From NCBI GenBank assembly GCA_022821235.1, contig JAJEEA010000030.1:1-42203 (forward strand): a stretch of DNA of 42,203 nt, in the 5' to 3' direction. The DNA comes from Vicinamibacteria bacterium (GTDB lineage: Bacteria > Acidobacteriota > Vicinamibacteria > Vicinamibacterales > UBA8438). The position numbers and the translations under genes are program-made. The stretch's first letter is position 1; each line of letters begins with the position of its first letter. The notes below the pieces were generated by a model that ran no database searches, was not told where the DNA came from, and worked only from the letters and a program-made list of their open reading frames with translations. This document shows, in pieces, positions 32,757-40,128 of the stretch.

Positions 32757-32966
32757 GACGACATCGACGAGGCGCGGTCCATCCACTGTTTCCACCATCC
32801 GAACGTCGTCCGGGCGCATCGCTACATCGAGGCGCACGACACGCCGTACATCGGCATGGAATACGTCCCCTTCCGGAAAGCCGTTGTCGAGCGCCCGGAT
32901 CGAGTGCCGTTCGACGAGAACGCGTCGCTGTCGGTGACGATTCTCCCAGCCGTCTTCGAAGACTGA
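32757..32966 (+). pseudogene. Fragment of a Ser/Thr protein kinase N-lobe
   Basis: The frame starts directly after the toxin stop without a start codon and reads EARSIHCFHHPNVVRAHRYI, then EAHDTPYIGMEYV, ending at a TGA at 32964-32966. This is the alpha-C/beta-4/hinge part of a Hanks-type kinase. The glycine loop, catalytic Lys and catalytic loop are all missing. The last 30 residues have no recognisable origin. It is a relic, not a functional kinase. Confidence 0.65.
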
Positions 32967-32988
32967 TGCCGGAGCGGGGGGCGCGTCC

Positions 32989-34140
32989 TCAGCGGTACTC
33001 GCCGTTCCACAGCGCCTCGAGGAACTCCGCGTACGGCAACACGTCCACCCCGCCGACGCGACGACGGCGCGGTTCCAGGCAGACGCAGAGATAGCGCCGC
33101 AGCTTCTCCTCTTCGGCCAGGGCCCGCAGCGCCTTCAGGTCGCCGGGCGACACGTTCGCCTTGCCCTTGACCTCGATCGCGGTGTGGTCGCCGAGGATGA
33201 AGTCGACCGCGAAACCCGACGTGGAGCGCCAGTGGCACAGGTCCTCGCCCGAGCGGTAGTCGATCCAGCTCCTGAGCTCGTGCAGCAGCCACGTCTCGAA
33301 CGCCAAGCCGAACTCCGGCGTGCCGGGCCGTGGCCGGCGACCCTGCAGCGCCGACGCGACGCCGATGTCGAAGAAATAGTACTTGGAGGACGCGAGCGGC
33401 TTGCGCTTGACGGATTGGCGCCAGGCGGGTACTTCGAAGAGCACCAGCGTGTCGCGCAGGATGCCGAAGTACTCGTAGACGGTCGTCCGCGGCGTCTGGG
33501 CGTCGTTGGCCACGTTGGTGAAGTTGACGATGGAGGCGTTCGCGAGGGCCGCGACGCGCAGGAACCGCCCGAACGCCGGGATGTTGCGTGTGGCGCCCTC
33601 GGCCACCACTTCCTCCTGCAGGTACGTGCCGGTGTAGGCGCGCAGGTCGGCAGCGGGATCGTCGGAGAAGTAGATCGACGGGAGGGTCCCGTGAGAGACC
33701 GCGCGTGCGAGATCGAATCGCCCGCCCAGCTCCATCCAGGTGAGCGGGTGCAGCACCTTCGTGCGCGCCCGGCCGCCGAGCAGGTTGACGCCGCCGCGGC
33801 GCAGCTTGCGGGCGCTGGACCCGGTCAGGAGGAAGCGCACGCCGCGCGCCTCGATGATGCGGTGGACCTCGTTGAGCAGCAGCGGCAGTCGCTGGATCTC
33901 GTCGATCGCCACGACGTCGACGTCCGGCGCGAGATCTTCGAGTATTCGGCCGGGCCGCTGGCTGAGATCGAGGAAGACGGCGTGGTCCAGCAGGTCGTAG
34001 ACCGGCGCCCTCGGAAGCGCGCGGCGAATGAGCGTGGTCTTGCCGGTCTGCCGGGGGCCGAGCAGAAAGTGGGACTTCCGGGCCAGCAGCGCGGGCAGGT
34101 CCAATGCGCGGTCGAGAATGGGTTCGGGCGGTGTCGGCAT
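32989..34140 (-). CDS. AAA+ ATPase with DUF4143 domain
   Basis: A 383-residue protein of the AAA_14/DUF4143 family. Walker A is LLGPRQTGKTTL (near residues 26-37), Walker B VVAIDEIQRLP, sensor-1 FLLTGSSARKL, and a C-terminal DUF4143 domain with YLQEEVVAEGATRNIPAFGR and a restriction-fold-like end DFILGDHTAIEVKGKANVS (Asp, Glu-x-Lys). Such proteins are common in accessory and mobile regions; their function is largely unknown. The ATG at 34140 is taken as start; a GTG three codons upstream (34149) is possible. The start region overlaps a palindromic site, and no Shine-Dalgarno sequence is seen. Confidence 0.88.
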   Translation of the reverse strand: MPTPPEPILDRALDLPALLARKSHFLLGPRQTGKTTLIRRALPRAPVYDLLDHAVFLDLSQRPGRILEDLAPDVDVVAIDEIQRLPLLLNEVHRIIEARGVRFLLTGSSARKLRRGGVNLLGGRARTKVLHPLTWMELGGRFDLARAVSHGTLPSIYFSDDPAADLRAYTGTYLQEEVVAEGATRNIPAFGRFLRVAALANASIVNFTNVANDAQTPRTTVYEYFGILRDTLVLFEVPAWRQSVKRKPLASSKYYFFDIGVASALQGRRPRPGTPEFGLAFETWLLHELRSWIDYRSGEDLCHWRSTSGFAVDFILGDHTAIEVKGKANVSPGDLKALRALAEEEKLRRYLCVCLEPRRRRVGGVDVLPYAEFLEALWNGEYR

Positions 34141-34141
34141 A

Positions 34142-34168
34142 GTCGTCACATATCATGACATATGACGA
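34142..34168. promoter_or_regulatory. Palindromic AT-rich site at the start of the DUF4143 ATPase gene
   Basis: CATAT and ATATG (34148-34152 and 34159-34163) flank six bases. GTCGTCA (34142-34148) and TGACGAC (34162-34168) form a second, overlapping inverted repeat. It is the most AT-rich spot in the area and lies just upstream of the start codon, so it may be an operator and promoter together. The gap 34150-34236 has no gene. Confidence 0.55.
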
Positions 34169-34236
34169 CAACGCCGACATCTGCCGTCGCCGGCAGCCCG
34201 GAAGGGTGGATGCGCCCAGGCACCAGGCCGACTCCT

Positions 34237-34549
34237 TCACACAACTTCCACGAGCGTATCCCCCCGATGAAGCGCGGCCAGGATGTCGCCCAACTCGTGG
34301 TCCATCCGATTGAGCAAGGCCGAGCGCCGTGTGTCACACTACCGCCGGCCCTGATGACAGGATGTGGTGAACTGCGAAGTCCTCGTCCTTGGTCACGATG
34401 ACCGCGCCGACTCGTTCCGCGTGGCCCCGGATGGCGTCGTCCGACGCCGCCGCCAAGCCACAGTCGGCGACATGCTCCGCCTCGTGGCCCTGGGCCTCCA
34501 TCCGGCGCGCCGGAGCCGGCGGGAGCTGGGCATCGACGAGGAAACGCAA
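34237..34549 (-). pseudogene. Frameshifted DUF5615 PIN-like toxin
   Basis: The frame from TTG 34549 encodes MRFLVDAQLPPA, ADCGLAAASDDAI, and AVIVTKDEDFAVHHILSSGP, typical of DUF5615 PIN-like toxins, then stops after PAVV at 34334. The next frame continues with TRRSALLNRMDHELGDILAA and ends in TLVEVV at 34237-34239, which is the normal end of the family. The junction lacks the usual WLRIGN-type segment, so a small deletion caused both loss and frameshift. It lies 1 bp after its DUF433 partner. The two PIN acidic residues (Asp6, KDEDF) lie in the retained N-terminal part. Confidence 0.75.
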
Positions 34550-34550
34550 G

Positions 34551-34775
34551 CTATGCGCTCCGCAGTACAGGATGATCGTGTCGACGTGCCGCGAACTCGA
34601 GAACGGCGACGATATCGTCGGGCTCCAGGTAAGGCAGGTCCTTCAGGATCTCCTCTCGCGTCGCGCCGGCCGCCAAGAGGTCCAACACGTCCGTGACGCG
34701 GATGCGCAAACCTCGAATGCAGGGCCGCCCCCCGCAGACGCCGGCGTCTGTCGTGATCCGATCGATCTTGCTCAC
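34551..34775 (-). CDS. DUF433 antitoxin
   Basis: A 74-residue DUF433 protein with IDRITTDAGVCGGRPCIRGL, VTDVLDLLAAGATREEILKD and YLEPDDIVAVLEFAARR, the whole conserved domain. DUF433 proteins pair with DUF5615 PIN-like toxins as antitoxins. It starts at GTG 34775 with AAGGAGG upstream. Its toxin partner begins immediately downstream and is frameshifted, so the antitoxin may now be free of selection for neutralisation. Confidence 0.85.
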   Translation of the reverse strand: MSKIDRITTDAGVCGGRPCIRGLRIRVTDVLDLLAAGATREEILKDLPYLEPDDIVAVLEFAARRHDHPVLRSA

Positions 34776-34831
34776 GGCGCCTCCTTCAGACAGCGAACGT
34801 CCATTATCTCCCGACTTCGCCAACAGCGCAT

Positions 34832-35100
34832 GAGGGCCGGCGGCGGACGGGTGCACGTCAGATTTGTTGGAGAGCCTGAGGCTGGCTTGGCGGCTCTTCG
34901 TTCCCGGAAGTCTCGAAGCAGCCGCGGAGATTCCGGCCGTGCAGCGCGATGGCGGCGTCGGCCTCTGCGATGGTCCAGCCCGTGCCGGTCCCAACAATGC
35001 TGACGTGCACCCGCGGCGGACTCGCCCTGCGACGCCGAGCGCGAGCGGCAGAAGCTGATCCAGCAGCAGGCGCGGGAGGGCCGGCGGCGGGCTCGCGCTA
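34832..35100. repeat. Degenerate 71-bp tandem duplication split by MITE-like element 1
   Basis: GAGGGCCGGCGGCGG-CTCGC-CT-CGAC occurs at 34832 onward (interrupted by the element) and again at 35076 onward. Removing the 164-bp element and one 9-bp target copy leaves a spacing of 71 bp. The second copy reaches the 3' end of the glycosyltransferase gene. Confidence 0.65.
34849..35012. mobile_element. MITE-like element 1: 164 bp, 12-bp terminal inverted repeats, 9-bp target duplication
   Basis: The ends are GGGTGCACGTCA (34849-34860) and TGACGTGCACCC (35001-35012), perfect inverted repeats. The 9-bp direct repeat GCGGCGGAC flanks both sides (34840-34848 and 35013-35021), the expected target-site duplication. 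The first 19 bp are identical to element 2 at 38736. The interior encodes no protein I recognise. It is therefore a non-autonomous element mobilised in trans. The 9-bp duplication length would fit several DDE transposase families. The site lies in a tandem-duplicated stretch between the DUF433 gene and the glycosyltransferase gene. Confidence 0.88.
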
Positions 35101-36174
35101 CGACGGAGCCGGGACGCTCGCCGCGTACACCGCCTCCAGCCTGCGAACGAGGGCTTCAGGCCCGAACCCGCGTGGCGGATCGACGCCATGCCCCGGCGCG
35201 ATGCGCAAAGCCGTCGCCAGCGCGTCGACGTCGCCCCAGGGCACCAGCAGATCGCCGCCGGGGTGCCACTCGCGCACGCCGCCGCTGTCCCAGGCGGCGA
35301 CCGGCGTGCCGAGGGTCAGGGCCTCGAGCCCGACGATGCCGAACGGCTCCTGCCAGCGCGAGGGCATGACGAGCACGGCGGCGCGCCGGTAGGCGGCGGA
35401 GAGGCGCCGGCGGCCGAGCCAGCCCAGCACCTCGACGCCCTCGGCCTCTACCTCGCGGCGTAGCGGTCCGGTGCCCGCCACGACGAAGGGCAGCCCGGAG
35501 CCCGACCGCCGCCAGGCTTCGATCGCCTCGCGGATGCCCTTGGCCTCGACCACGCGCCCGGCGAACAGGACGCAGGGCGGACCGTCGGCCCGCGCGTCGG
35601 GGTCGAGGCCGCGGGTGACGGGGGGCACGATCGTGACCTGGTCCGCGGGGACCCCCACCTGGGTCAGCTCGCGCTTCATGTAGGACGACAGCACCGCCAC
35701 CCGCAGCCGCCTCACCCATTCCAGCCGCTGCGCGGTCAGCGCGAGCGTGCTCTCGAAATAGCCCCGATCGTCGAAGCAGCCGGCGCACGCCTCGCGCCCC
35801 ATCGCTTCGCCGCAGACGCGGCCGTCGGCGGTCCACTTGCCGCGTCCCGGACAGAAGAAGCGGTGGTCCTGGACCGTCATCACCGCGTCCACGCCGGCCG
35901 CCCACGCCAGCACCGCGGGGTTGACCACGTTGTGCACGTGCACCAGGTCCGGGCGCAGCCGCGCCCTCAGGGGGGCGAGATCGGCCTCGGCCCGCACCCT
36001 GGCGTCGAGCCGCGGGACGACGGTCACCGGACAGGGCGGACGCACGGCGCCGTCGACGCGGCCCACCGCGAGGTGCTGCTCGTGCCCGGCCGACAGGGCC
36101 TGGAGCACACCGAGAAGGGCCAGGTCGGCTCCCCCTCGGTCACTCAGTCGGTCCGCGAGATGGAGAATCCGCAT
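35098..36174 (-). CDS. GT4-family glycosyltransferase
   Basis: A 358-residue GT-B fold glycosyltransferase. The N-terminal acceptor domain starts MRILHLADRLSDRGGADLAL and holds the VHVHNVVNPAVL segment and a Cys cluster (FFCPGRGKW, VCGEAM, ACAGCFDD). The C-terminal donor domain has LFAGRVVEAKGIREAIEAW, VVAGTGPL and the EX7E-type motif in MPSRWQEPFGIVGLEAL. Likely a cytoplasmic enzyme adding a sugar to a cell-surface glycan. The start is ATG 36174, within GGCGGCGATGCGG; upstream in-frame sequence is made of repeat copies with similar GGCGGCGATG contexts. Confidence 0.9.
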   Translation of the reverse strand: MRILHLADRLSDRGGADLALLGVLQALSAGHEQHLAVGRVDGAVRPPCPVTVVPRLDARVRAEADLAPLRARLRPDLVHVHNVVNPAVLAWAAGVDAVMTVQDHRFFCPGRGKWTADGRVCGEAMGREACAGCFDDRGYFESTLALTAQRLEWVRRLRVAVLSSYMKRELTQVGVPADQVTIVPPVTRGLDPDARADGPPCVLFAGRVVEAKGIREAIEAWRRSGSGLPFVVAGTGPLRREVEAEGVEVLGWLGRRRLSAAYRRAAVLVMPSRWQEPFGIVGLEALTLGTPVAAWDSGGVREWHPGGDLLVPWGDVDALATALRIAPGHGVDPPRGFGPEALVRRLEAVYAASVPAPS

Positions 36175-36330
36175 CGCCGCCGGGCGTCCCCGCCGCCCTT
36201 CCGACACGGCAGAGCGTGACGCGGCGGAGCGTGCCGGCCTCACGCATCATCGCCGCCAGGCGTCCCCGCCGCCCTCCGACACGGCAAAGCTTGACGCGGT
36301 GGAGCGAGCCGAGTCTACGCATCGCCGCCG
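36172..36330. repeat. Degenerate 72-76 bp array at the glycosyltransferase start and NIPSNAP end
   Basis: The motif CATCGCCGCC (minus strand GGCGGCGATG) occurs at 36172, 36248 and 36320, 76 and 72 bp apart. CCGACACGGCA-AGC-TGACGCGG-GGAGCG occurs at 36201 and 36276. One copy contains the NIPSNAP stop and another the glycosyltransferase start codon, so the array spans a gene junction. Confidence 0.8.
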
Positions 36331-36896: not shown

Positions 36897-38591
36897 CTAT
36901 CTCATGCCCGGCGGCGGGACCCGGCGCATCGTCGCCTGCTCGAATGCATAGGCCAGCTCGATCAGCCGCGGCTCGCTGCAGGCCGTCCCCGCGAAGCTGA
37001 CCCCGAATGGTCGGGGCCTCGGCTCGAAGTCCTCCGGCATCGGCGGGTCCGATTCGGTCGCGACGAAGGCGTAGGGCACGATGACGGTCGGGTAGCCCGG
37101 CCGGGCGGAGATGCCGGCCCCGCTCGACCCGGGAAAGAGCAGGGCATCCAGCTCGAGGCCGGTCATCACCTCGTCGATGCCATGCTCGCCGTTCAGATGG
37201 AGGTCCCGCGCGCGGTCGGCCTCGTACTCGGCGCGGTCCGCCTCCAGGTCGATCTCGTCGGCGCCGTCGAGTCGGGCCTGCCCGTACTTGAGCGCGCCCG
37301 CCTGCTCGTGAGCCAGGTTCCATTCGCGGAGCGCCGTCAGCGTCTCGACGGGGGCGGTGTCGCCCAGGGTCGCGAGCCAGGCATTGAAGTCGCGCTTCAT
37401 GCCGTACGCGAGCACGCTGCTCCCGGTGCTCGAGAGCAGGTTGCCGGCGGGGTCGGGGTCGACGACGCTCGGGATGTCCGCCGGATCGACGATCGTGGCG
37501 CCTTCCTGCTCGAGGACCGCGATGGCCTCGGCCATCACGGCCCTGCCCGCCTCCGACAGCCGGCTTTGCGGCTCGTCGGAGCCGGGAGCCGCGACCGGAT
37601 CGTAGTAGAGCGCCCGCGGAATGCCGATGCGCGCCCCCTGCAGGCCGTCGCGGCGGAGAAAGACCGTGTAGTCCCGACCGGGCGGAGGCTCGCATCGCGA
37701 CGTCGCCGGATCGTTGGGGTCGGGCGCGGAGCCCTCGAGGGCCCCGAGCATGATCGCGGCATCGGTGACGGTGCGCGCCATCGGCCCCGCCGTGTCCTGA
37801 TCGGCGGTGATGGGAATGACGCCCCAGCGGCTCACCCGCCCCACCGTCGGCTTGATGCCCGCCAGCATGTTCGCGTTCGACGGGGACAGGATGGAGCCCG
37901 ACGTCTCGGTCCCGACGTTCGCCGCCCAGAAGCTGGTCGCGGTGCCGATGCCGGAGCTGGAGCCGCCGGTGCCCATGACGGGGCGGCCGTCGTTCGTGCC
38001 CGCGCGCGGGTCGCGGCGGGGGTCGTACGGATTCAGGCCGAATCCCCCCAGCGCGCTGTAGTTCCCCGGCATGCCGCTGGCGGTGTAGTTCGCGAGCTCG
38101 GTCATGACGGTCTTGGCGAGGATGACGGCTCCGGCCTCGCGCAGGTTCGTGGTGAGCGTCGCCTCGTACGGCGGCACGTAGCCTTCGAAGGCCAGCGCGC
38201 CCCCGGTGGTCGGCAGGTCGGTCGTGTGGACGTTGTCCTTGAGCGCGACGGGAATGCCGTGGAGCGGTCCCCGGACCCGTCCCTCGGCGCGCTCCGCGTC
38301 GAGTCGGTCCGCCTCGGCGAGGGCGTTGGCGTTGACCGCGATCGCGGCGTTCACGCGCTCCTCGTACAAGGCGATGCGCAGCAGGTGCGCTTCGACCAGT
38401 TGCCGTGACGTGACCCGCCCCTCCTCCATCGCCCGCTGCATCTCGAGCACGGTCGCCTCGACCACCTCGAAGCGCTCTGCCGGCTCCTCGACCGTGCACG
38501 AGGCGAGGAGCCCCGGCAGGAGAGCCGCGGCAACCGCGACGGCAAGACGGATCCTCATGCGACGTACCGATACGCGGGAAAGCGCCTGCAT
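36897..38591 (-). CDS. Amidase-signature lipoprotein
   Basis: A 564-residue Ser-cisSer-Lys amidase. It has a lipoprotein signal (LLPGLLASC, Cys32), so it is probably anchored to a membrane outside the cytoplasm. The catalytic Lys is Lys118 (IPVALKDNVHT), the cis-Ser region is GTGGSSSGIGTA (about 207-218) and the nucleophile Ser233 lies in VGTETSGSI. Length is at the long end for the family. Substrate unknown; relatives act on amide bonds of varied small molecules or aminoacyl groups. The start is ATG 38591 with AGGAG eight bases upstream; ATG 38558 is possible. Confidence 0.9.
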   Translation of the reverse strand: MQALSRVSVRRMRIRLAVAVAAALLPGLLASCTVEEPAERFEVVEATVLEMQRAMEEGRVTSRQLVEAHLLRIALYEERVNAAIAVNANALAEADRLDAERAEGRVRGPLHGIPVALKDNVHTTDLPTTGGALAFEGYVPPYEATLTTNLREAGAVILAKTVMTELANYTASGMPGNYSALGGFGLNPYDPRRDPRAGTNDGRPVMGTGGSSSGIGTATSFWAANVGTETSGSILSPSNANMLAGIKPTVGRVSRWGVIPITADQDTAGPMARTVTDAAIMLGALEGSAPDPNDPATSRCEPPPGRDYTVFLRRDGLQGARIGIPRALYYDPVAAPGSDEPQSRLSEAGRAVMAEAIAVLEQEGATIVDPADIPSVVDPDPAGNLLSSTGSSVLAYGMKRDFNAWLATLGDTAPVETLTALREWNLAHEQAGALKYGQARLDGADEIDLEADRAEYEADRARDLHLNGEHGIDEVMTGLELDALLFPGSSGAGISARPGYPTVIVPYAFVATESDPPMPEDFEPRPRPFGVSFAGTACSEPRLIELAYAFEQATMRRVPPPGMR

Positions 38592-38735
38592 CACACGGCT
38601 CCTGTTCGTCCCGTTTCCATCCGGATCCAGCCTCGTCCCGTTCGGGCGCGGCGTGCCGAGGCGGCCAGGGCGCTGCAAGGTCGACGACCGGGAACAGCCC
38701 GATTATAGGCGGCTTCCGCCGACCCCGGGAACCGG
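38592..38735. other. Amidase upstream region
   Basis: Part of a 394-bp gene-free stretch (38592-38985). This portion holds the Shine-Dalgarno sequence of the amidase and possibly its promoter (GATTATAGG near 38701, whose minus-strand reading CCTATAAT contains TATAAT). The remainder is MITE-like element 2 and a duplicated dehydrogenase tail. Confidence 0.5.
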
Positions 38736-38865
38736 GGGTGCACGTCAGATTTGTGGGACCCGCCACTGCCGCCGTGAGCACTTCGCCGAAAGCCACCCGT
38801 TCGCACGCCAACCTGGCCCCAGAATGCTCGCAACCGCGAATCTGCAACTTTCCTGACGTGCACCC
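38736..38865. mobile_element. MITE-like element 2: 130 bp, same termini as element 1
   Basis: The ends are GGGTGCACGTCA (38736-38747) and TGACGTGCACCC (38854-38865). The 9-bp sequence GGGAACCGG is present directly before (38727-38735) and after (38866-38874). The left 19 bp GGGTGCACGTCAGATTTGT matches element 1 exactly, but the interior differs in length and sequence. It contains no recognisable gene. It is inserted at the edge of the duplicated dehydrogenase 3' end. Confidence 0.88.
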
Positions 38866-39065
38866 GGGAACCGGACGGCACGAACGTCACCAGGCGCGAT
38901 GGTACAGCTCTAGGGCCTCGCGGACGCCGAAAGGACGGTGACGGGGTGAACGTGCCCGCCCGCGGGGAACCGGCCGGCACGAACGTCACCAGGCGCGCTG
39001 GTACAGCTCGAGGGCCTCGCGGGCGCCGAAGGGCCGCGGGTTGAACGTGCCCGTCCACTGTGCGG
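38866..39065. repeat. 99-bp duplication of the alcohol dehydrogenase 3' end
   Basis: A unit starting near GGGAACCGG and running through CACGAACGTCACCAGGCGCG is found at about 38866-38964 and again at 38965-39063. Offset is 99 bp (for example CGAACGTCAC at 38881 and 38980). The distal copy encodes ALELYHRAW then TGA on the minus strand, matching the real ALELYQRAW end. It is a spare, non-translated gene tail. Confidence 0.88.
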
Positions 39066-40128
39066 CCGCCGCCTCGGCCAGCGACGGCAGATCGTCGGCC
39101 GCTACGCCGGCGGTCCGGAGGTCGGACGAGAATCCGCCCGACCGGCCGGCGGCGGCGAGTCGGCGGGCCAGGCGGTCTCCGGCGCCGCCGGGGTGCGAGG
39201 GCGGCGGCAGCGCGCCCACGAGGTCGCGGTAGAGATCGGCGCCATCTTCCGCGTTCCAGCGCACGACGTGCGGCAGCAGGATCGCCAGCGCCACGCCGTG
39301 CGTCAGCGCGTAGCGCGCGGTCAGGGGGTTGGCGCAGGCGTGCGCGGCCCCGAGCATCGAGTGCTCGATGGCCACTCCCGCGTAGAACGCCCCGAGCTGC
39401 ATCGCCGCGCGCGCATCGACGTCCCCCGGGTCGGCCAGCGTGCGTTCGTAGTGGGGCTCGAGCAGCCGGAAGGCGGCGTGCGAGAACAGCGTCGAAATGG
39501 GAGTGCGGCGCGTGGTGACGGCGGTCTCCACCGCGTGGGCGAGGGCGTCGAAGCCGGCGGCGGCGGTCACCGCGGGCGGCTGCGAGACGGTCAGCCCGGG
39601 ATCGAGGATCGCCGCCGCGAAGGCGAGCTTCGGGTCGCCGCACGCCATCTTCATGTGGGTGGCGCTGTCGGCGATGACCGCGTAGCTCTGGGCCTCGGAG
39701 CCGGTGCCGGCGGTCGTCGGCACCGCGATCATCGGGAGCAGCGGCCTGCGGGCGAGCCCGTAGCCTTTGTAGTCGGCGATGGTCCCCCCGTTGGTGAGCA
39801 GCAGGTTGATGCCCTTGGCGCAGTCGAGGGGACTGCCCCCGCCCAGGCCGATGACGCCGTCGGGTCGGCAGGCGGCGGCGAACTCGACGCCCCGGTCGAC
39901 CATCGCGCCGTCGGGGTTCGCCTCGCACGCGTCGAAGACGGCGGGCTCGACCCCGGCGTCGCGCAGTTGCCCGAGCGCGCGCTCGACGTGGCCGGCGTCG
40001 CGCAGCCCGCGGTCGGTGACGAGCAGCGGCCGCGAGAAGCCGAGCTCGCGGGCGAGGGGCCCAAGACGGTCGATGGCGCCCGATCCGAACACGAGGCGGG
40101 TCCGAAGCTGGAACTCGAAAGGTGTCAT
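38986..40128 (-). CDS. Iron-containing (group III) alcohol dehydrogenase
   Basis: A 380-residue Fe-ADH family oxidoreductase. The NAD(P)-binding region has GVIGLGGGSPLDCAKGI (92-107), and metal ligands are Asp194 and His198 (AGFDALAHAVE), His263 (GAAHACANPL) and His277 (ALTHGVAL). Length is normal. It probably reduces aldehydes or oxidises primary alcohols in the cytoplasm; substrate not deducible. The start is ATG 40128. Upstream on the minus strand CATACT (40153-40148) could be the -10. Its 3' end is duplicated just downstream. Confidence 0.93.
   Translation of the reverse strand: MTPFEFQLRTRLVFGSGAIDRLGPLARELGFSRPLLVTDRGLRDAGHVERALGQLRDAGVEPAVFDACEANPDGAMVDRGVEFAAACRPDGVIGLGGGSPLDCAKGINLLLTNGGTIADYKGYGLARRPLLPMIAVPTTAGTGSEAQSYAVIADSATHMKMACGDPKLAFAAAILDPGLTVSQPPAVTAAAGFDALAHAVETAVTTRRTPISTLFSHAAFRLLEPHYERTLADPGDVDARAAMQLGAFYAGVAIEHSMLGAAHACANPLTARYALTHGVALAILLPHVVRWNAEDGADLYRDLVGALPPPSHPGGAGDRLARRLAAAGRSGGFSSDLRTAGVAADDLPSLAEAAAAQWTGTFNPRPFGAREALELYQRAW

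What the first reader, a model, noticed from the sequence alone, without database searches (positions are those of the whole stretch)
34849..35012. A MITE-like family with 12-bp inverted termini and perfect 9-bp target duplications
Two elements, here and at 38736-38865, have identical 12-bp inverted ends (GGGTGCACGTCA), share the first 19 bp, and each is bracketed by a different perfect 9-bp direct repeat (GCGGCGGAC and GGGAACCGG). Seeing target duplication twice with different sequences is strong evidence of transposition. They encode nothing. I cannot match these termini to a family I know.
Basis: seen in the sequence. Interest (0 to 1): 0.85.

Follow-up and report, generated by a model that had tools for sequence, protein, structure and literature searches.

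The report
MITEs derived from an ISKra4 transposon
Two short, gene-less transposable elements in this window belong to families of cut-down copies of an ISKra4-family (Mutator-type) bacterial transposon whose full-length relatives insert with the same 9-bp target duplications; the type is known, but their habit of landing exactly beside one another is unusual.

Summary
Confirmed. The two elements (34849-35012, 164 bp; 38736-38865, 130 bp) have 13-bp perfect inverted ends and are each bracketed by a different perfect 9-bp direct repeat. The host genome carries about 50 such ends, in at least three miniature families (about 164, 150 and 130 bp). Across 87 non-redundant insertions, 46 have perfect 9-bp duplications and no other length is enriched. 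A same-genus genome has an ortholog of the 38736 site without the element and with one diverged copy of the 9-mer. The autonomous parent type is identified: 1.83-1.88 kb insertion sequences with the same ends and 9-bp duplications, encoding an ISKra4-family (Mutator superfamily) transposase. The 164-bp element is an internal-deletion derivative: 143 bp match the transposase 3' end, joined to 22 bp of the other end. (1) Pairs of elements lie 8-9 bp apart far more often than chance (11 against about 0.09 expected), which suggests resident ends act as preferred targets. (2) In a same-genus chromosome a composite transposon (ISKra4 element, ~3.1 kb with citrate synthase and a LarB-like gene, related miniature element) sits at six sites, each with its own 9-bp duplication.

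The parts
34849..35012 (+). MITE of the 164-bp family (left end = transposase-3'-side end of the parent IS)
   Evidence: 11 matching places spanning most or all of the element in the host genome at 88-100% identity, plus further partial matches; 143 bp + 22 bp match the two ends of an ISKra4 IS
34840..34848 (.). 9-bp target duplication, left copy (GCGGCGGAC)
35013..35021 (.). 9-bp target duplication, right copy (GCGGCGGAC)
34849..34861 (+). terminal inverted repeat, 13 bp perfect (GGGTGCACGTCAG)
35000..35012 (-). terminal inverted repeat, 13 bp perfect
34912..34986 (-). decayed remnant of the ISKra4 transposase C-terminus (GTGWTIAEADAAIALHGRNLRGCFE, against GMHWTVAGANAIIALRCCKLSGRFE)
   Evidence: 13/25 identical, E=7e-5; the surrounding 143 bp is 75% identical to the parent at DNA level, E=1e-22
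38736..38865 (+). MITE of the 130-bp family
   Evidence: a 100%-identical second copy at contig C147, an 88% copy at C424 and a 68-bp internal-deletion form at C517
38727..38735 (.). 9-bp target duplication, left copy (GGGAACCGG)
38866..38874 (.). 9-bp target duplication, right copy (GGGAACCGG)
   Evidence: single diverged copy (GCGAACCCG) at the empty orthologous site in G003
38736..38748 (+). terminal inverted repeat, 13 bp perfect
38853..38865 (-). terminal inverted repeat, 13 bp perfect; the terminal 35 bp (38831-38865) is 86% identical to the 5'-side end of a second ISKra4-type element in the host genome

Best explanation
[quoted passage not shown] Shown here: the ends, the 9-bp duplications, the multiplicity, an empty orthologous site, the autonomous relatives with the same ends and duplications, the descent of the 164-bp family from the IS ends, and natural composites in which one end is an ISKra4 IS and the other a MITE of a related subfamily. 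Inferred: that the transposase of the host genome itself moves the 164- and 130-bp elements; that transposition goes by copy-out/paste-in with a circular intermediate, as reported for related Mutator-like transposases; and that the recurrent 8-9-bp spaced pairs arise because the transposase, which in circle formation joins an element end into the flank a few bp outside the partner end, can do so with a different element, so that a resident end becomes a preferred target.
For: Autonomous copies: IS1876 in OY282382.1 (L097, L099, L112, L120, L152 and others), and 1829-1830 bp copies in L065 and L073, with identical 19-bp ends. Their ORFs score 282-301 bits to NF033572 ISKra4 transposase, cut-off 205. 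Perfect 9-bp duplications at L112, L099 and L152. MITE-164 nt 1-143 matches the last 145 nt of IS1876 (75%, E=1e-22) and nt 143-164 matches its first 22 nt (91%); a 198-bp element in the host genome shows the same architecture at 92% over 162 nt. The host genome holds ISKra4 transposase 3' ends at six contig edges, so the multi-copy IS itself is broken in assembly. Empty site in G003. 9-bp duplication length statistics. Composites: IS1876 + 3093-bp cargo (2911 bp at one site) + MITE-181 at six sites, each with its own perfect 9-bp duplication. 8-9-bp spaced pairs. Literature: prokaryotic Mutator-like elements have 18-39-bp IRs and 8-9-bp duplications, and the circles reported for several of their families carry 6-10 bp of flank between the ends (PMC3942029); an IS256-family structure explains strand transfer into the flank of the recipient end (PMC7780238).
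Against: No intact transposase is assembled in the host genome (only C-terminal ends at contig edges), and none was found in same-genus genome G003, which nevertheless carries many MITEs. The 130-bp family shares only its terminal ~23 and ~35 bp with ISKra4-type ends, so its descent is less direct than that of the 164-bp family. The composites use a related MITE subfamily (181 bp), not the two in the window. No transposition was observed experimentally.
Confidence: 0.93

Rival explanations
1. The elements are MITEs of another IS family that makes 9-bp duplications (for example IS4/IS50- or IS1-like), and the ISKra4 similarity is limited to convergent ends.
For: 9-bp duplications are not unique to ISKra4 (own knowledge). 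No intact ISKra4 gene is assembled in the host genome.
Against: Homology extends 143 bp into the transposase 3' coding region with a recognisable peptide. Full-length IS with the same 19-bp ends carry ISKra4 transposases in Vicinamibacterales, Alphaproteobacteria and Pseudomonadales MAGs.
Confidence: 0.03
2. The repeats are REP/REPIN-like or regulatory hairpins, with the 9-bp repeats arising by chance or local duplication.
For: Both fold into stable hairpins as RNA (z -5.3 and -3.3), and the surrounding DNA contains other local repeats, for example the duplicated gene end at 38866-39060.
Against: Perfect 9-bp duplications of different sequence at 46 of 87 insertions, against 0.08 expected with 8 or more of 9 matching; an empty orthologous site; no Rfam match.
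Confidence: 0.02
3. The 8-9-bp spaced pairs reflect movement of pre-formed pairs, or recombination between copies, rather than targeting of resident ends (a rival to the targeting step only, not to the MITE identity).
For: A pair can in principle move as a unit between its outer ends. Outer 9-mers differ from the middle 9-mer in several pairs.
Against: In C27, C258 and (with a 1-bp shorter spacer) L221 all three 9-mers agree, the pairs join different subfamilies in different orientations, and the 9-mers differ between pairs, as expected from two successive insertions at one spot.
Confidence: 0.3

Closest known systems
ISKra4-family insertion sequences (p-MULT 4; NCBIfam NF033572; PMC3942029)
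   Same: Same transposase family in the autonomous copies; near-perfect terminal repeats; 9-bp target duplications; Mutator-superfamily relatives.
   Different: The window elements are 130-164 bp with no functional gene. The autonomous relatives read as two overlapping ORFs around an A7 run with a -1 shift, which PMC3942029 reports for the sister ISMich2 group; the subgroup was not resolved here.
Bacterial IS-derived MITEs in general (review PMC10969869; MITEAba12, PMC6382973)
   Same: Short, non-coding, terminal repeats and target duplications shared with an autonomous IS, multiple copies.
   Different: The parent family is ISKra4. Searches of the held open-access papers for ISKra4 with MITE or 'miniature inverted-repeat' gave four papers in all, none of which by title and abstract concerns ISKra4-derived MITEs.
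TIMEs and TIME-COMPs (Tn3-derived miniature elements and composites; PMC4133298, PMC13367494)
   Same: Miniature elements whose ends mobilise intervening genes as a composite (from the abstracts).
   Different: Those derive from Tn3-family transposons. The composite seen here in G004 has an intact ISKra4 IS at one end and a miniature element at the other, and carries citrate synthase and a LarB-like gene.

Membership tests
MITE (non-autonomous, IS-derived) | Short, with terminal inverted repeats | tested here: met
   13-bp perfect ends, 130 and 164 bp
MITE (non-autonomous, IS-derived) | No functional transposase gene | tested here: met
   Only a decayed 25-codon remnant in the 164-bp element; no transposase-sized ORF fits in 130-164 bp
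MITE (non-autonomous, IS-derived) | Target site duplication on insertion | tested here: met
   empty site with one diverged 9-mer copy
MITE (non-autonomous, IS-derived) | Multiple dispersed copies | tested here: met
MITE (non-autonomous, IS-derived) | Ends shared with an autonomous element | tested here: met
   Full-length ISKra4 IS with identical 19-bp ends; internal homology for the 164-bp family
ISKra4 / p-MULT 4 (for the autonomous relatives) | Transposase above the ISKra4 model cut-off | tested here: met
   282-301 bits against 205; 13 loci above the cut-off in G004
ISKra4 / p-MULT 4 (for the autonomous relatives) | IRs of 18-39 bp and 8-9-bp duplications (PMC3942029) | tested here: met
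   IRs of 19 bp or more and perfect 9-bp duplications at L112, L099, L152
ISKra4 / p-MULT 4 | Intact transposase in the host genome itself | tested here: inconclusive
   Only transposase 3' ends at six contig edges; the interior is not assembled
ISKra4 group | Insertion a fixed distance upstream of sigma-A promoters (reported for some members) | not tested
   Only base composition of target sites was examined; no strong motif
ISKra4 / Mutator-like | Circular transposition intermediate | not testable with these tools
   Needs PCR or long reads on living cells

The most novel reading that the evidence does not exclude
The ISKra4 transposase treats the 8-9 bp outside a resident element's terminal repeat as a preferred target, so elements of different subfamilies accumulate in tandem and share the target duplication. 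This would be the trans version of the strand transfer that normally closes the transposon circle.
Probability: 0.5. Interest if true: 0.6.

Novelty: new member of a known kind. Interest (0 to 1): 0.4.

Why it matters
It assigns an unplaced MITE family to a parent (ISKra4, Mutator superfamily) for which the held literature describes no miniature derivatives, in Vicinamibacterales genomes. It also offers a testable signature, the 8-9-bp spaced pairs, of how Mutator-type bacterial transposases choose targets, and shows an IS/MITE composite that has recently copied metabolic genes to six places in one chromosome.

Tried and rejected
A clean empty site for 34849-35012 was sought in G003 and other relatives. 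The flanks are conserved, but a 1.25-kb block (32960-34209) lies in a different order there, so this site is not informative. An empty site for the C258 tandem pair was sought; the flanks are found in G003 and G004 but diverge across the junction, so it neither supports nor contradicts. A target-sequence motif: none strong in 46 sites. RNA family: no Rfam match. The 45-aa N-terminus beside the second end type gave no NCBIfam match; relatives in G014 and G020 run into ISKra4-like sequence, so it is probably the 5' end of a second ISKra4 lineage, but no full copy was found. Literature searches for tandem or TSD-targeted insertion gave nothing directly comparable.

Full report
Observation. Both elements are present exactly as described: 34849-35012 (164 bp) between two copies of GCGGCGGAC, and 38736-38865 (130 bp) between two copies of GGGAACCGG. 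The perfect inverted ends are 13 bp (GGGTGCACGTCAG). These four ends are the only exact GGGTGCACGTCA matches in the window. Both elements are intergenic: the first lies between a DUF433 gene (34554-34775, minus strand) and a group-1 glycosyltransferase (35101-36243, minus), the second between an amidase (36900-38678, minus, with the start uncertain) and an iron-containing alcohol dehydrogenase (38989-40128, minus).

Multiplicity and target duplications. The host genome (6.62 Mb, 552 contigs; the window is contig 325) has 52 matches to the first 19 bp with up to 3 mismatches, against 0 for the reversed control. Matches to the 164-bp element number 19, of which 11 span most or all of it at 88-100% identity. 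The 130-bp family has a 100%-identical copy at C147, an 88% copy at C424 and a 68-bp deletion form at C517. A third family of 150-153 bp has nine copies. Over 87 non-redundant elements from all fetched loci, perfect flanking repeats occur at 9 bp in 46 cases and at other lengths of 3 or more in 0-4; 55 pairs match at 8 or more of 9 positions, against a mean of 0.08 when flanks are shuffled between elements.

Empty site. In G003, a same-genus genome (its contig C51 has the same length, 60,835 bp, as JAJEFC010000166.1, a Vicinamibacteria MAG, so it is probably that record), the sequence runs continuously through the position of the 130-bp element...GGCTTCCGCGGGCCACCGCGAACCCGCCGGCACGAACG..., with a single diverged copy (GCGAACCCG) of the 9-mer. 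The first element's site is uninformative there because the neighbourhood is rearranged.

Parent. A scan of public genomes for the 19-mer found full-length elements with the same ends at both sides: 1876 bp, many copies, in OY282382.1 (a complete Vicinamibacterales chromosome), and 1829-1830 bp in an alphaproteobacterial and a Pseudomonadales MAG. Their ORFs score 282-301 bits against the NCBIfam ISKra4 transposase model, cut-off 205. Several IS1876 copies have perfect 9-bp duplications (L112, L099, L152). The coding region reads as two overlapping frames around an A7 run, compatible with a -1 frameshift; this is inferred from sequence. The host genome has the last 22-35 profile positions of ISKra4 transposases at six contig edges, as expected if a multi-copy IS broke the assembly.

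Descent of the miniature elements. The 164-bp element matches the last 145 nt of IS1876 over its first 143 nt (75%, E=1e-22) and the first 22 nt of IS1876 over its last 22 nt (91%); a 198-bp element at C41 shows the same structure at 92% over 162 nt. On the minus strand of the window element the peptide GTGWTIAEADAAIALHGRNLRGCFE aligns with the transposase C-terminus, 13/25 identical. The 130-bp family shares about 23 bp with IS ends at the left and 35 bp (86%) at the right with a second kind of end found at contig edges C464, C465, C475 and C444. Beyond that second end lies an ORF start whose relatives in G014 and G020 run into ISKra4-like sequence (32 bits for the G020 stretch, below the family cut-off), so it is probably the 5' end of another ISKra4 lineage.

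Elements acting together. The segment is 100% identical at five sites and carries one ~180-bp deletion between internal repeats at the sixth. It carries a citrate synthase gene (PF00285) and a gene matching AIR carboxylase (PF00731), which I read as LarB-like from general knowledge. This shows that an IS end and a MITE end of this family are used together by one transposition machinery. It concerns a related MITE subfamily, not the two in the window.

Tandem pairs. Counting the gap between the right end of one element and the left end of the next gives 8 cases at exactly 9 bp and 3 at 8 bp, against a background of 0.044 per bp for gaps of 20-1000 bp, so about 0.09 expected. Three pairs are in the host genome (C27, C258, C350). 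In C27 and C258 all three 9-mers are identical, in L221 nearly so, and the elements belong to different subfamilies. The simplest reading is that the second element used the first one's target duplication as its target. Circles of several Mutator-like elements carry 6-10 bp of flank between the ends (PMC3942029), and in the IS256-family ISCth4 structures strand transfer goes into the flank of the recipient end (PMC7780238). A trans version of that reaction would give exactly this spacing. This mechanism is inferred. The counts come from loci fetched because they contain these ends, with up to 2 mismatches allowed, and outer partners were not resolved for every pair.

Verdict. The finding is right and the family is now placed: ISKra4-derived MITEs. 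The kind is known; the parent family and the end-adjacent insertion pattern are the new parts. PMC searches found no description of ISKra4-derived MITEs, but most subscription journals are not in that library and ISfinder could not be consulted.

Noticed in passing
L302, L303, L304, L306, L307, L308 (OY282382.1 = G004): Composite transposon (ISKra4 IS + ~3.1 kb with citrate synthase and a LarB-like gene + 181-bp MITE) at six sites with different perfect 9-bp duplications; near-identical copies imply recent spread.
   Followed up: partly
L302 2284-2301: At one composite site the 18-bp spacer between two adjacent IS copies (ACCGTGGCAGTGCCCGAC) joins the two cargo-edge sequences, as if this locus were near the composite's birthplace; not resolved.
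   Followed up: no
window 38866-39060: The 3' end of the iron-containing alcohol dehydrogenase gene is duplicated in tandem (about 95 bp) next to the 130-bp MITE; GGGAACCGG also occurs at the second copy.
   Followed up: no
window 32960-34820: Relative to same-genus G003, the 32960-34209 block and the DUF5615/DUF433 (possible toxin-antitoxin) block at 34223-34820 are in swapped order beside the first MITE.
   Followed up: partly
G000 contigs C464, C465, C475, C444 (L275-L277): A second kind of end (GGGTGCACGTCAAGAAAGT) followed by an ORF start MPEAELTEPLDHAAQKRGV..., always at contig edges; probably the 5' end of another ISKra4-type element broken by assembly.
   Followed up: partly
L309 477-3683 (OY282382.1): A 3.2-kb element with the same ends, an ISKra4 transposase, about 1.3 kb of extra DNA and a perfect 9-bp duplication (GATCGGCGC); possible passenger gene.
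   Followed up: no
G003 (same genus): Carries many 130- and 164-bp MITEs but no ISKra4 transposase match in its assembly, so its MITEs may be orphaned or the IS unassembled.
   Followed up: no
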